This document shows, one piece after another, positions 33,370-38,358 of a DNA stretch of 64,000 bases; the stretch's first letter is position 1; the number at the start of each line of letters is the position of its first letter. The notes below the pieces were generated by a model. It was not told the origin of the DNA, did not search any database, and saw only the letters and a program-made list of their open reading frames with translations. The position numbers were made by a program, and so were the translations under genes. Source of the stretch: Persephonella hydrogeniphila (GTDB lineage Bacteria > Aquificota > Aquificia > Aquificales > Hydrogenothermaceae). The stretch is taken from positions 1 to 64,000 of the forward strand of contig NZ_OBEI01000004.1 in NCBI RefSeq assembly GCF_900215515.1, in the 5' to 3' direction.

Positions 33370-35335
33370 TTTTTAGACCTCTGATTACTTGGTAGTCTTC
33401 ATAAATATTTTTTGCTATAAGGCTCCATTCTGTATTACACTGCTGAATTCTCTGCCTGTATTTTTCAATAAGTTTTTCCATATCTGTCCTCACAGCAGCT
33501 ACCAGCACCCAGCTATTTATATCACAGTCCTTTTTTAGCCTTTCGGACAGGGGTATTAATATCTTTAGAGCTTGTTGGTAAAGTTCTTTTTCAAATAACA
33601 GGTAAACAATTTTCCTTATGAACATCTTTCCTATAACAGTTTTTGTATAGTAATCAGGAAGTTTGTCTGTCACAGGTTCAACAGTTTTAAAAGCTTTCTC
33701 TACCTGTCCGTTCTCTAAAAATAGATAGGATATTACCACTCTTTTCTCTACACTCTCTTTTTTACATCTATTTTTTATTCTATCTATAAGCGATATATCC
33801 GCTTTTTTCAAAAAGATATAATTTTTTGACAGAAGTATATAATACTGACAGTTTTTATTTTTTATCTTTTTTAAGATCTCGACTGATTTTTTATATTTTT
33901 CTAAAGAGTAATAAGCATCCGCCAAAAGTAAAACTGCTCTATCATCTTTCCATTTGTTGTACAGAAAGTTTGCTATATCAAAAGCCATTTTTAGTTTACC
34001 GCACTTTTTTAAATTTGAATAAAAATGCTCAAGCATTTTTCTGTCAAAAACTGTATAAAAAAATTTTTCATTTGAAGAGAAAAGCTTACATACTCTCATA
34101 TAGTTCAGTCTGTACAACTCAGGTTCCCACAACTCCCTTATATACTCTATATGCTCATACTTCATACGGCTGATATTAACAAGGGAAAGTTCGTGTACAA
34201 GTTTGTCAAACAGCTTTTCTGATTTTGAGCCAAGAACCATAAACCCAAAATCTGCAAGTGCAAAGAAACCAACATAGTTGTTTCTGTTCAGAACAAGCGC
34301 CTTTAAAATAAAACCAAGGGGATCTTTAAAATCCTTATCCTCTGAAGTTAAAAGCCTTATCTGAATATCTCTATCTCTTTTGCCGAGGGCTATTAGTTTT
34401 AGTTTTGCTATTACAGCCTCATCTGTGTCTGGATATTTCTTTACTACCTCATAATAATAATTCATCGCCAGAATTTTATCACCTTCTTTAAGGGCTATAT
34501 CACCCAGTCGCAGTAAAGCTTTTCTTATAACAGATTCATCTTTTACTATACTTATAATTCTTTTGAATATCTTTTTTGCAAAACTGTAATCTCCAAGCCT
34601 GTAGGCATTCTCTCCTACAATCAGGTAATAATCAGGGTTTTCTATAAGGTACTCTTCATAAGTTTTATATACTGGGATAAGGTATTTTATAGCCTCTTTA
34701 TAGTTTCCCTTCTCAAACTCTACAAGACCTTTTACAAACTCAAACTCTTTTTTCTCTTTTTCTGAAAGCTCAGAAAGGTTCACAAGTATAATATACCTTG
34801 TGATTATATCCATCCTTTTCAGCCATGCAGCTACTCTGAGGATAGCAACTACTGTCTTAAACTGCTTTTTTGGAGTATCAGCCATAGAAAAGGCTTTTTT
34901 ATACATAGCCAGTGCCCTTTCATACATGTAAAGGTTCTCATAGATATTACCTTTTGTGTAGTAAAATTCCCAGTCAAACGGATTTTCTACAGAGTATGAG
35001 TATGTGTTTAGATAATACATCGCCTTCTGTATGAACTCTTTAAGACCTGTTTTTCTACCAAGATGAAGGTATATCTTTGCCATAAGGAAAAGGGCTTTGC
35101 CGTAAAAGGGGTTATTCCTGTCCCTTACAAGTTTTGACAGTACATTTAATGCTGTGTAATAAGAACCTCTCCTGTACATCTGGAGAGCAAGTCTATAATC
35201 TTCCTCTAACTGCTTTATCTCTTCAGGTGTGTATACTTTTTCTGTTTTTTTCTCAGGGACAGGTTGATTCTCCTGTGATACGGCAAATCCATAGAAAAAA
35301 AATAAAAGCAAAAGGATTATCTTAAACCTTAACAT
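33362..35335 (-). CDS. Predicted periplasmic TPR protein in flagellar operon
   Basis: A 657-residue protein with a signal peptide (LRFKIILLLLFFFYGFAVS, cleavage near 20) and many tetratricopeptide-like helical repeats across about 45-330 (LALQMYRRGSYYTALNVLSKL, YYTKGNIYENLYMYERALAMY, ENAYRLGDYSFAKKIFKRI) and again about 440-620. No enzymatic motif is visible. It lies between fliK and flgB and overlaps both (14 and 8 bases). An envelope scaffold around the motor, comparable in role to the TPR proteins PflA/PflB of Campylobacterota, is a hypothesis from location and fold; homology is not shown. Confidence 0.75.
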   Translation of the reverse strand: MLRFKIILLLLFFFYGFAVSQENQPVPEKKTEKVYTPEEIKQLEEDYRLALQMYRRGSYYTALNVLSKLVRDRNNPFYGKALFLMAKIYLHLGRKTGLKEFIQKAMYYLNTYSYSVENPFDWEFYYTKGNIYENLYMYERALAMYKKAFSMADTPKKQFKTVVAILRVAAWLKRMDIITRYIILVNLSELSEKEKKEFEFVKGLVEFEKGNYKEAIKYLIPVYKTYEEYLIENPDYYLIVGENAYRLGDYSFAKKIFKRIISIVKDESVIRKALLRLGDIALKEGDKILAMNYYYEVVKKYPDTDEAVIAKLKLIALGKRDRDIQIRLLTSEDKDFKDPLGFILKALVLNRNNYVGFFALADFGFMVLGSKSEKLFDKLVHELSLVNISRMKYEHIEYIRELWEPELYRLNYMRVCKLFSSNEKFFYTVFDRKMLEHFYSNLKKCGKLKMAFDIANFLYNKWKDDRAVLLLADAYYSLEKYKKSVEILKKIKNKNCQYYILLSKNYIFLKKADISLIDRIKNRCKKESVEKRVVISYLFLENGQVEKAFKTVEPVTDKLPDYYTKTVIGKMFIRKIVYLLFEKELYQQALKILIPLSERLKKDCDINSWVLVAAVRTDMEKLIEKYRQRIQQCNTEWSLIAKNIYEDYQVIRGLKNE

Positions 35336-37325
35336 TTATTTCTCTACTGATATCCTTTTTATCGGGAATTTTTTTGATCTCAGATGTATATCTGACCTCT
35401 TTCTCTTTGTTCTTAATTCTTAAAAAATAATTTTCAATACCGCTTTCATGTATTATCTGGGATATTTCATGTCTTAGAGAGTACAAACTATCAGTTGTGA
35501 TATTTTTTACCATTAGATGCAGGTTTATGCTGTTTCCTGTAAATCTTGCTCTTAAGGCAAACTCTCCGAATTTGAGATTAAAACTCAGATGTCTGCTGAA
35601 TCTGTTATCTGTCTGTGTATCCTCTCCTTTATCAGTATAGCTACTATTTCCTGTATTAGACTGACTGTCTGAAAAGCTATCTTTTCCGTTCTGAAGGTTA
35701 TCTGAGAAATAATGGGTAGTGACTGTATCTGAACCGTGTTTATAGCTCCCTGACAACTTATCTGAATCTGTTTTTTCCACAGCTTGAGTTCTAAATATAT
35801 CTACTTTTTCCTGCAAGTTAGGTTTTCCCTGTACCTCTACATCTGTCTTCTGGTAGCTCTCTTTATCCTCTCTATGTTTTTGTGTTGTTTTACTATCCTT
35901 GTTATGTACTATTTCTTTCATACGTTTAAAGTCTACTGGATGCTTGGTTGTTTCATAAACAGAATTTTGTTTTATGTGTCTGTCTTCTACAGAAGGAGAG
36001 GACTGTTTTTCAGTATTATTATACACAGTTTCGTGCTGAACTTTATGCTCATCAAGTTTATTACCTAAGTGTTTAGAGCTTTCGGTATGAAGTGATATCT
36101 TCCTGTTAAAAGGTGAATCTACAGCAGATCTGAATGGGATTTTCTCTGCTGTGGGTCTGTCTTCCGCTTTCTCTATTGGAACTTTTTTTGGATCTTCTTT
36201 TTTAGAATCTTCTTTATCACTTTTTATCTCAGAAAAGTTATATTTTTCTGATTTTTTTGTATTTATAGTTGCATAGTTCTTATCTATAAGATGAAAACGG
36301 TCTTTTTCAGGAGCGCCTGTTTTAGAATAGTGGTAAACAGTTTGGGTCTGAATATCCCTTTCTACAGGAGGTTTATCTCTTAATGGCTTACCTTTTAATA
36401 AATCAGGTTGTTTTTCTATTTCCGTGAAGATTTCTGCTACTTCTGATCTGTTCTTTATGCTCAGGTCTAAGATTTTTTTCTGAACTGATTTTTTCACGCT
36501 GATTTTTCTATCTGGCTGTATATGTGGCTCAGAAAATTGAACAGTTTTTTTATCTGAATATGTCTCTAAAATGGAAAGAGATTTTTTTTCTTTAACTACT
36601 CTCTGTACATTACTTGCTTTTATATCCTGATAGAGATGAGCTGAATTCTGGTGCACAGTTTTTTTGGCCGGTGGTATTTCAGGTTTTACATACTGCTGGA
36701 CTGGAGGGTTTATTTTTTGACCTGCAGAATTATGTAAAAATGGTTTAACATCCTGTTTTTTAGCTGTTTTCTTTAAATTACTCTCTGTAGCTGGCGTATG
36801 GACAGACTGTTTTTTTATGATTCTCTTTGTCTGGGTGATAAAAAAGAACTCTTTTTTAAAGGAGTTATTGTAAGGAGTATTTTCTGTTGGCTGTTTAACA
36901 GGTAGTTCTAAAACGGGAATATTTATAGGACTGTTAGGAAGATACTCTTTTTTCATGCTTTTCTTTGGGATATCACCGGTTTTTGACTGAAAATTACTAT
37001 CAGAACAGTCAGTTATTAAGCCTGAAAAATCTGATTTATTCTGCTGTGGGAATACAGCAGGTTTCTGGTTTGGTTTTGGACTAAATTTCAGACCGGTGAA
37101 AAGATATACTGGAGGAGTATGTTTTTTTATGATCTGATTTTTATCTAAAACTCTGTGGGGGTAATACTGGTTCAGCAGATCGGTTTTGTTTTTTTTATGA
37201 GTACCTTTTTTATTCTGGGTTTTAAAACTTTCAAAAATCTGGGCAAAAATATCCCCTTTCCTTTCTGACTTTTTTCCTTTCCTATAAAAAAGTTTTTCCA
37301 GACCAGTTGCTTTAGCTACAAACAT
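35322..37325 (-). CDS. FliK-like hook-length control protein
   Basis: A 667-residue protein from the ATG at 37325, which has AAAGGAA at good spacing; an in-frame TTG at 37370 lacks one. About 550 residues are low-complexity Lys/Ser/Thr/Gln/Asp sequence, as expected for a molecular ruler. The C-terminus (about 575-645: LSFNLKFGEFALRARFTG, NLHLMVKNITTDSLYSLRHEI) resembles the FliK hook domain that triggers the FlhB switch. It is the first gene of the large rod/hook/export operon. Sequence conservation is weak, so the call leans on domain shape and position. Confidence 0.72.
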   Translation of the reverse strand: MFVAKATGLEKLFYRKGKKSERKGDIFAQIFESFKTQNKKGTHKKNKTDLLNQYYPHRVLDKNQIIKKHTPPVYLFTGLKFSPKPNQKPAVFPQQNKSDFSGLITDCSDSNFQSKTGDIPKKSMKKEYLPNSPINIPVLELPVKQPTENTPYNNSFKKEFFFITQTKRIIKKQSVHTPATESNLKKTAKKQDVKPFLHNSAGQKINPPVQQYVKPEIPPAKKTVHQNSAHLYQDIKASNVQRVVKEKKSLSILETYSDKKTVQFSEPHIQPDRKISVKKSVQKKILDLSIKNRSEVAEIFTEIEKQPDLLKGKPLRDKPPVERDIQTQTVYHYSKTGAPEKDRFHLIDKNYATINTKKSEKYNFSEIKSDKEDSKKEDPKKVPIEKAEDRPTAEKIPFRSAVDSPFNRKISLHTESSKHLGNKLDEHKVQHETVYNNTEKQSSPSVEDRHIKQNSVYETTKHPVDFKRMKEIVHNKDSKTTQKHREDKESYQKTDVEVQGKPNLQEKVDIFRTQAVEKTDSDKLSGSYKHGSDTVTTHYFSDNLQNGKDSFSDSQSNTGNSSYTDKGEDTQTDNRFSRHLSFNLKFGEFALRARFTGNSINLHLMVKNITTDSLYSLRHEISQIIHESGIENYFLRIKNKEKEVRYTSEIKKIPDKKDISREINVKV

Positions 37326-37341
37326 AATTTTCCTTTGGATA

Positions 37342-37370
37342 AATTTAAATAATTTTTCGACAGATTGCAA
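37342..37370 (-). promoter_or_regulatory. Possible promoter of fliK-flhB operon
   Basis: On the minus strand TTGCAA (37365-37370) is 17 bases from TAAATT (37342-37347). The predicted start of transcription falls almost on the ribosome-binding site, leaving a very short leader. That makes the match doubtful despite good hexamers. No other convincing promoter is seen in the 105-base gap before fliK. Confidence 0.35.
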
Positions 37371-37373
37371 AAC

Positions 37374-37400
37374 TTAATTAGAGATTGAAAAAAACGATAA
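37374..37400 (+). promoter_or_regulatory. Sigma-28-like promoter for the YYK-repeat gene
   Basis: On the plus strand TTAA (37374-37377) is followed after 15 bases by AACGATAA (37393-37400). The flagellar sigma-28 consensus is TAAA-N15-GCCGATAA, so the -10 matches at six of eight positions, including the whole CGATAA core. It lies 30 bases upstream of the repeat-protein ATG. FliA, the sigma factor that would read it, is encoded convergently next door. Confidence 0.5.
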
Positions 37401-37430
37401 TAGAAAGATATTTAAAATAGGTGGTTGATG

Positions 37431-37739
37431 ATGGAAAACAAAGGTTTGATTGTCGTTTTGCTTGTTTTAACTCTCAGTATAGGAGGTTTGGCATACTTCC
37501 TATATGAAAAGGTGTATAAAAATGAGTACAGGTATTACAAAGGTGAGATAAGGAAAACTCCAAAATATTACAAAGCAAAGCCTGAAAACGCTCCCAATTA
37601 CTACAAAGGATCTTTAAATAAAGTTCCCAATTATTACAAAAAAAATGTTGAAGATATGCCTAACTACTATAAACCTAAAGGAAGCGTAAAGGAAAAAGAC
37701 AGGGCAAATCTTATAAGAAGTATTAAAGAAAACTGGTAA
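37431..37739 (+). CDS. Small membrane-anchored protein with five 11-residue YYK repeats
   Basis: A 102-residue protein with no recognised family. An N-terminal hydrophobic helix (about 6-25) is followed by five repeats with Tyr-Tyr-Lys at residues 35, 46, 57, 68 and 79, an exact 11-residue period. The consensus is about PNYYKxxxxxx. A short charged tail (82-102) ends in Trp. Repeat copies differ in synonymous codons (tattacaaa, tactacaaa, tactataaa), suggesting selection on the protein. The ATG at 37431 is best spaced from AGGTGG; ATG 37428 and TTG 37425 are alternatives. It sits alone, opposite in strand, between two flagellar operons. Confidence 0.72.
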   Translation: MENKGLIVVLLVLTLSIGGLAYFLYEKVYKNEYRYYKGEIRKTPKYYKAKPENAPNYYKGSLNKVPNYYKKNVEDMPNYYKPKGSVKEKDRANLIRSIKENW

Positions 37740-37740
37740 A

Positions 37741-38358
37741 TCAGTATACATAGACAGACTTTAGTTTTTTTATAGCTTCTGATTTTATCTGTGAAACCCT
37801 TGAAACAGATACATTTATCTCTTCTGCAACCGCTTTAAGATCCTTTTCCTCAAAGTACAGCATCTGGAGAACTTTTTTTTCTTTTTCTGAAAGTAGTTCT
37901 AAAGCTTTTAAAAGCTTCTCCTTCTGATCCTCTTTTATAACCTCTTCTTCCGGTGTTTCTCTACCGGAAACCAGAGTGTCTATAATCTTGAAACTCTCAT
38001 CTGAAGATAGAGCTTTTTCTATACTTACCATCACAGCTGTGTTAGAAAGGGGTACAGGTTTTCCTTCTTCTAATGGAGGTTCTTTTTTTATCTTGTCTCT
38101 TACTGTTCTCGGAACTATATCAAGGCTTCTAAGATAGTCTAATATCTCTCCTCTTATTTTTATGTAGGCATACGTTGAAAATCTGGCTTTATCTTTGTCA
38201 TACTTTTCTATGGCTTTCATAAGACCTATTACGCCTACATTTACAAGATCATCAAACTCTATATCTCCTTTAGGCAACCTGTAGTAAATCTTACTTGCCA
38301 CTTTTTTAACAAGGGACAGATTGTCAAGAATCAGTTTTTCTCTTTCTTTTTTATCCAT
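37741..38358 (-). CDS. fliA: Flagellar sigma factor FliA (sigma-28)
   Basis: A 205-residue sigma-70-family factor. Region 2 (about 10-80) includes GDIEFDDLVNVGVIGLMKAIEKYD and FSTYAYIKIRGEILDYLR. Region 4 (about 150-203) includes LLSEKEKKVLQMLYFEEKDLKAVAEEINVSVSRVSQIKSEAI. It is a little shorter than the usual 230-240 residues. It directs late flagellar and chemotaxis transcription. It is the last gene of a 21-gene operon, two bases after flhG. No FlgM anti-sigma gene was recognised in the window. Confidence 0.92.
   Translation of the reverse strand: MDKKEREKLILDNLSLVKKVASKIYYRLPKGDIEFDDLVNVGVIGLMKAIEKYDKDKARFSTYAYIKIRGEILDYLRSLDIVPRTVRDKIKKEPPLEEGKPVPLSNTAVMVSIEKALSSDESFKIIDTLVSGRETPEEEVIKEDQKEKLLKALELLSEKEKKVLQMLYFEEKDLKAVAEEINVSVSRVSQIKSEAIKKLKSVYVY

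What the first reader, a model, noticed from the sequence alone, without database searches (positions are those of the whole stretch)
37393..37739. YYK-repeat membrane protein behind a sigma-28-like promoter
A 102-residue protein has a membrane helix followed by five YYK triplets at residues 35, 46, 57, 68 and 79, an exact 11-residue period with Pro-Asn before most copies. Synonymous codon differences suggest the repeat is kept by selection. It lies alone between two flagellar operons on the other strand, with a CGATAA-type -10 and fliA convergent to it. I recognise no family. A Tyr/Lys repeat could bind peptidoglycan, polysaccharide or a filament, or stack as a short solenoid.
Basis: partly seen in the sequence, partly recalled or inferred. 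Interest (0 to 1): 0.7.

Follow-up and report, generated by a model that had tools for sequence, protein, structure and literature searches.

The report
Orphan tyrosine-lysine-repeat small membrane protein
A real, selectively conserved 102-residue membrane protein with five Tyr-Tyr-Lys repeats, found only in a few related heat-loving bacteria; it belongs to no known family, and its apparent link to the flagellum is only a matter of where the gene sits in one genus.

Summary
The ORF is real: 37431-37739 (+), 102 aa, with one hydrophobic helix and YYK exactly at residues 35, 46, 57, 68 and 79. It has orthologues in 11 of 14 genomes of its own genus and 7 of the other 27 genomes of its family (three further genera), and no convincing one elsewhere among 136 genomes of the phylum. 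The repeat segment is the most constrained part (pN/pS 0.15, against 0.51 for the helix), with 4-5 units and a near-constant 74-86 residues after the helix. No Pfam, NCBIfam, PHROGs or PDB family matches. AlphaFold gives a helix, a disordered repeat arm and a short C-terminal helix.

The flagellar reading fails. Outside this genus the gene lies in three other, non-flagellar places, and several flagellated genera lack it. True sigma-28 promoters of this lineage (16 of 16 flagellin genes) read CTAAAAAA...CGATAAT; the proposed site scores -7 against 34-46, and its CGATAA is absent from 9 of 11 species. A sigma-70-like TTGAAA-N18-TATTTA is better conserved.

Best guess: an orphan inner-membrane-anchored, extended, cationic/aromatic arm, probably periplasmic, that binds an anionic or sugar polymer of the envelope and docks by its C-terminal helix. 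The mechanism is inferred, not shown.

The parts
37431..37739 (+). YYK-repeat membrane protein gene, 102 aa (in-frame ATG also at 37428)
   Evidence: orthologues
37446..37502 (+). codons of the most hydrophobic 19 residues (6-24), membrane helix; AlphaFold helix 2-30
37527..37691 (+). codons of five 11-residue units, residues 33-87 (YYK at 35, 46, 57, 68, 79)
37692..37736 (+). codons of residues 88-102, C-terminal helix ending in conserved W (F or L in distant members)
37419..37424 (+). AGGTGG, likely ribosome-binding site
   Evidence: sequence
37385..37414 (+). sigma-70-like TTGAAA-N18-TATTTA; both hexamers kept in 4 of 11 species, near-kept in a fifth
   Evidence: one search scores a shifted version as no better than chance
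37741..38358 (-). fliA (sigma-28), tail-to-tail neighbour in this genus only

Best explanation
A lineage-restricted (orphan) single-pass inner-membrane protein that is not part of the flagellum. Shown: one N-terminal hydrophobic helix, a near-constant-length Tyr/Lys/Pro-rich arm of 4-5 units of about 11 residues under strong purifying selection, and a conserved C-terminal end. Predicted only: that the arm is unfolded and the end a short helix. Inferred: the N-terminus stays inside and the arm lies in the periplasm; the evenly spaced Tyr-Tyr-Lys 'stickers' bind an anionic or sugar polymer of the envelope (peptidoglycan, LPS or exopolysaccharide) while the C-terminal helix docks on a partner, so that the protein tethers or spaces the inner membrane and that layer. 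An arm of about 55 residues could reach roughly 15-17 nm if fully extended (about 0.3 nm per residue).
For: Orthologues with the same layout in four genera. pN/pS is 0.15 in the repeats, 0.30 in the C-terminal part and 0.51 in the helix. The length after the helix is 74-86 residues in all 16 members, with a net charge of +10 to +15. N-flanks are 2-11 residues with net charge +1 to +7, counting the amino terminus. AlphaFold: confident first helix, low-confidence repeats, C-terminal helix 88-101/104, in two predictions with different lead sequences. Four unrelated gene neighbourhoods argue against a role tied to one pathway.
Against: Topology is undecided: C-flank charges (+1 to +3) about equal N-flank charges in most members, so a cytoplasmic arm is possible. 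No ligand, partner or localisation data. The C-terminal helix is not clearly amphipathic in the window's own genus. The gene is absent from most other genera of the family, so the role is dispensable across the family.
Confidence: 0.38

Rival explanations
1. The arm faces the cytoplasm: a short N-terminus outside, the Lys/Tyr-rich tail inside, binding nucleic acid, ribosomes or acidic lipid head groups at the membrane.
For: Net charge of the tail is +10 to +15 and charge flanks are about balanced; in g3 and g4 the gene lies directly downstream of a DHH/tRNA nucleotidyltransferase gene.
Against: The N-flank is not negative in any of the 16 members and is strongly positive (+6, +7) in two, which favours N-inside; the neighbourhood is not conserved.
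Confidence: 0.25
2. A small accessory subunit of one membrane complex (respiratory, transport or sensor), the repeat wrapping round a partner.
For: In G024 (g5) the start codon overlaps the end of a CNNM/CorC gene and in g3/g4 the gene is embedded before a two-component pair; repeats and C-terminus are conserved.
Against: No neighbour is shared by all genera; the DHH-regulator pair exists without the gene in G000, G017 and G020.
Confidence: 0.2
3. One reading: a flagellar accessory protein expressed from a sigma-28 promoter.
For: It sits between flagellar genes, tail-to-tail with fliA, throughout the window's genus; a CTTAA-N17-CGATAA string with correct spacing is present.
Against: The string is not conserved, scores -7 against 34-46 for flagellin promoters, and matches of this quality are no commoner than the control; synteny is lost outside the genus; flagellated genera lack the gene.
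Confidence: 0.07
4. A regulatory locus rather than chiefly a protein: its transcript runs antisense into the end of fliA and damps sigma-28.
For: Stops are 0-1 nt apart in the five species where the distance can be read exactly, so convergent transcripts probably overlap.
Against: Protein-level constraint is strong and the gene lies elsewhere in other genera.
Confidence: 0.05

Closest known systems
Plant extensins (Pfam PF02095 Extensin_1)
   Same: Pro/Tyr/Lys-rich short repeats; two distant members give weak Pfam scores (best E 0.0012).
   Different: No poly-Pro/hydroxyproline blocks; a weak compositional match in 2 of 16 members only, none for the window protein; bacterial and membrane-anchored. 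An analogy, not homology.
TonB/TolA-like membrane-anchored periplasmic arms (from general knowledge)
   Same: N-terminal membrane helix followed by an extended segment that could cross the periplasm.
   Different: No matching Pfam domain, no C-terminal globular domain, far shorter, different repeat.
11-residue-repeat proteins such as synucleins and LEA proteins (from general knowledge)
   Same: An 11-residue period and lysines in each unit.
   Different: A Pro in nearly every unit forbids a continuous amphipathic helix; AlphaFold shows none.
Sigma-28-dependent flagellar genes
   Same: Position beside fliA in this genus.
   Different: Promoter not of the lineage's sigma-28 type; linkage not conserved.

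Membership tests
Sigma-28 (FliA) regulon | promoter like the lineage's flagellin promoters CTAAAAAATT...CCGATAATAAA | tested here: not met
   PWM score -7.1 against 34-46; 150 better-scoring positions in the window
Sigma-28 (FliA) regulon | promoter conserved in orthologues | tested here: not met
   CGATAA in 2 of 11 species
Sigma-28 (FliA) regulon | expression lost without FliA | not testable with these tools
   needs a mutant or transcript data
Flagellar accessory protein | synteny with flagellar genes across genera | tested here: not met
   only in the window's genus
Flagellar accessory protein | present in flagellated relatives | tested here: not met
   flagellin but no YYK gene in g2, g6, g8, g10 and G034
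Extensin-like (PF02095) | Pfam match over the gathering score | tested here: not met
   no match for the window protein; best E 0.0012 in two other members
Any Pfam/NCBIfam/PHROGs/PDB family | significant profile match | tested here: not met
Signal-anchor periplasmic protein | N-terminal helix with positive-inside bias | tested here: inconclusive
   single helix clear; charge bias near zero in most members

The most novel reading that the evidence does not exclude
A new kind of envelope tether or ruler: a membrane-anchored, unfolded periplasmic arm in which evenly spaced YYK stickers on an 11-residue pitch hold an envelope polymer at set intervals, with constant length selected for, restricted to one clade of thermophiles and carried by a gene that changed place at least three times.
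Probability: 0.15. Interest if true: 0.5.

Novelty: new variant of a known kind. Interest (0 to 1): 0.3.

Why it matters
It is a clean, testable example of a taxonomically restricted small membrane protein with a precise short repeat kept by selection and no named family. If the arm binds an envelope polymer, it would give a minimal Tyr-Tyr-Lys binding module from a thermophile. It also shows that a gene lying among flagellar genes need not be flagellar.

Tried and rejected
Sigma-28 promoter (PWM from 16 flagellin promoters, alignment of 11 upstream regions, genome pattern counts): rejected. Flagellar synteny outside the genus: rejected. Recent internal duplication: rejected, since units share 14-21 of 33 nt. 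Homologues in family f2 of the same order: the pattern hits there were an unrelated protein of about 65 aa without a membrane helix (YYKLPINVPSVYYK; six translated). The hit in G038 (E 1.3e-4) is part of a 196-aa protein with another layout and was rejected. Plasmid and viral collections: nothing. Fold search not run, because the model is low-confidence outside the first helix. Rfam: nothing meaningful. Literature: no paper with 'YYK repeat', nothing useful on Persephonella. A C-terminal amphipathic helix as a membrane binder: not supported for the window protein (hydrophobic moment 0.27, 53% of shuffles as high). The listing was incomplete; the counts were used.

Full report
The thing itself. 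The ORF at 37431-37739 (+) encodes 102 residues. A likely ribosome-binding site, AGGTGG, lies 6 nt before the ATG at 37431. Residues 6-24 form the only strongly hydrophobic stretch. YYK stands at 35, 46, 57, 68 and 79, and 200,000 shuffles of the tail never gave five. The five units are far apart at the DNA level (14-21 of 33 nt shared), so they are old.

Is it a gene? Yes. Orthologues were found in 11 of 14 genomes of the same genus; the three without it are only 55-74% complete. Seven more lie in three other genera of the family (g3: G015; g4: G023, G029; g5: G017, G024, G030, G108). Records named Persephonella came up among the closest. In 136 genomes of the phylum there was no other credible match. 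Other phyla were reached only by the close-relative pattern scan, which found nothing beyond Persephonella-type records. Across 11 genus members pN/pS is 0.27 overall, 0.15 in the repeats, 0.51 in the helix and 0.30 in the C-terminal part. pS values of 0.6-0.8 are near saturation, so the ratios are rough, but the ranking is clear.

Anatomy of the family. All 16 aligned members have a short N-flank, a helix, 4-5 Tyr-containing units at about 11 residues and a C-terminal stretch ending in W, F(K) or L. The length after the helix is 74-86 residues in all. AlphaFold, run twice with different lead sequences, gives a confident first helix, low-confidence repeats and a C-terminal helix. No Pfam, NCBIfam, PHROGs or PDB family matches.

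The promoter. Sixteen flagellin genes from the family share CTAAAAAATT...CCGATAATAAA (two have ACGATAAT) about 37-47 nt before the ATG. With the bare core CTAAA-N17-CGATAA the site is one mismatch off, but such matches number 58 in the genome against 79 for the reversed control. In the alignment of 11 upstream regions CGATAA is present only in the window and in G007; TTGAAA-N18-TATTTA is intact in the window, G011, G010 and G002 and nearly so in G007. The other six species have different start-proximal sequences, so neither promoter is kept genus-wide. A simple scan finds no excess of sigma-70-like sites here, so the alternative promoter rests on conservation alone.

The neighbourhood. In the window's genus the gene lies between the divergent gene at 35322-37325 and fliA, tail-to-tail, with stops 0-1 nt apart in the five species where it can be read exactly (G000, G001, G005, G006, G009). 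In g3 and g4 it lies between a DHH/CBS/poly(A)-polymerase-head gene and an OmpR-type regulator with its kinase; in three g5 genomes (G024, G030, G108) after a CNNM/CorC gene; in G017 near a hypB-like gene. In G000, G017 and the g8 genome G020 the DHH gene is followed directly by the regulator, without the YYK gene. The gene has therefore changed place at least three times. FliA is present in 26 of 28 genomes tested and flagellin in 25 of 28, including g2, g6, g8 and g10, which lack the YYK gene. On a FliA tree the YYK label needs two changes (bootstrap 2-3), far fewer than shuffled labels (8.6), so presence follows descent with few losses.

What it probably does. Everything beyond the anatomy is inference. 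A membrane-anchored, probably unfolded, Lys/Tyr/Pro-rich arm of nearly fixed length suggests a tether. A short N-terminus that is never negative, and strongly positive in g4, tilts the topology towards a periplasmic arm, but the charge difference is small. Tyr-Tyr-Lys at an even pitch could bind an anionic or sugar polymer, as extensin-type repeats are thought to do in plants (general knowledge; the weak Pfam score is compositional). A cytoplasmic arm, or a subunit of some complex, cannot be excluded.

Verdict.

Noticed in passing
window 37341-37385: A block of about 45 bp conserved in all 11 genus members between the divergent gene and the YYK gene; on the minus strand it reads TAAT-N17-CGAAAA, with sigma-28-like spacing, and may be the promoter of the divergent (fliK-like) operon.
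   Followed up: partly
window 37739-37741 and fliA ends in L088-L095: Tail-to-tail packing of YYK and fliA with 0-1 nt between stops in five species; convergent transcripts must overlap or end inside the opposite gene.
   Followed up: partly
L196, L197, L201, L204, L207: A DHH/tRNA nucleotidyltransferase gene followed by a response regulator is conserved across several genera, and the YYK gene is inserted between them only in g3 and g4.
   Followed up: yes
   Followed up: partly
L058-L078 upstream of flagellin: A sharply conserved sigma-28 promoter in 16 flagellin genes of the family, useful as a lineage-specific matrix.
   Followed up: yes
L114-L132: A conserved protein of about 65 aa with YYKLPI..P(S/G)VYYK in family f2 of the same order, unrelated to this finding; function not examined.
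   Followed up: no
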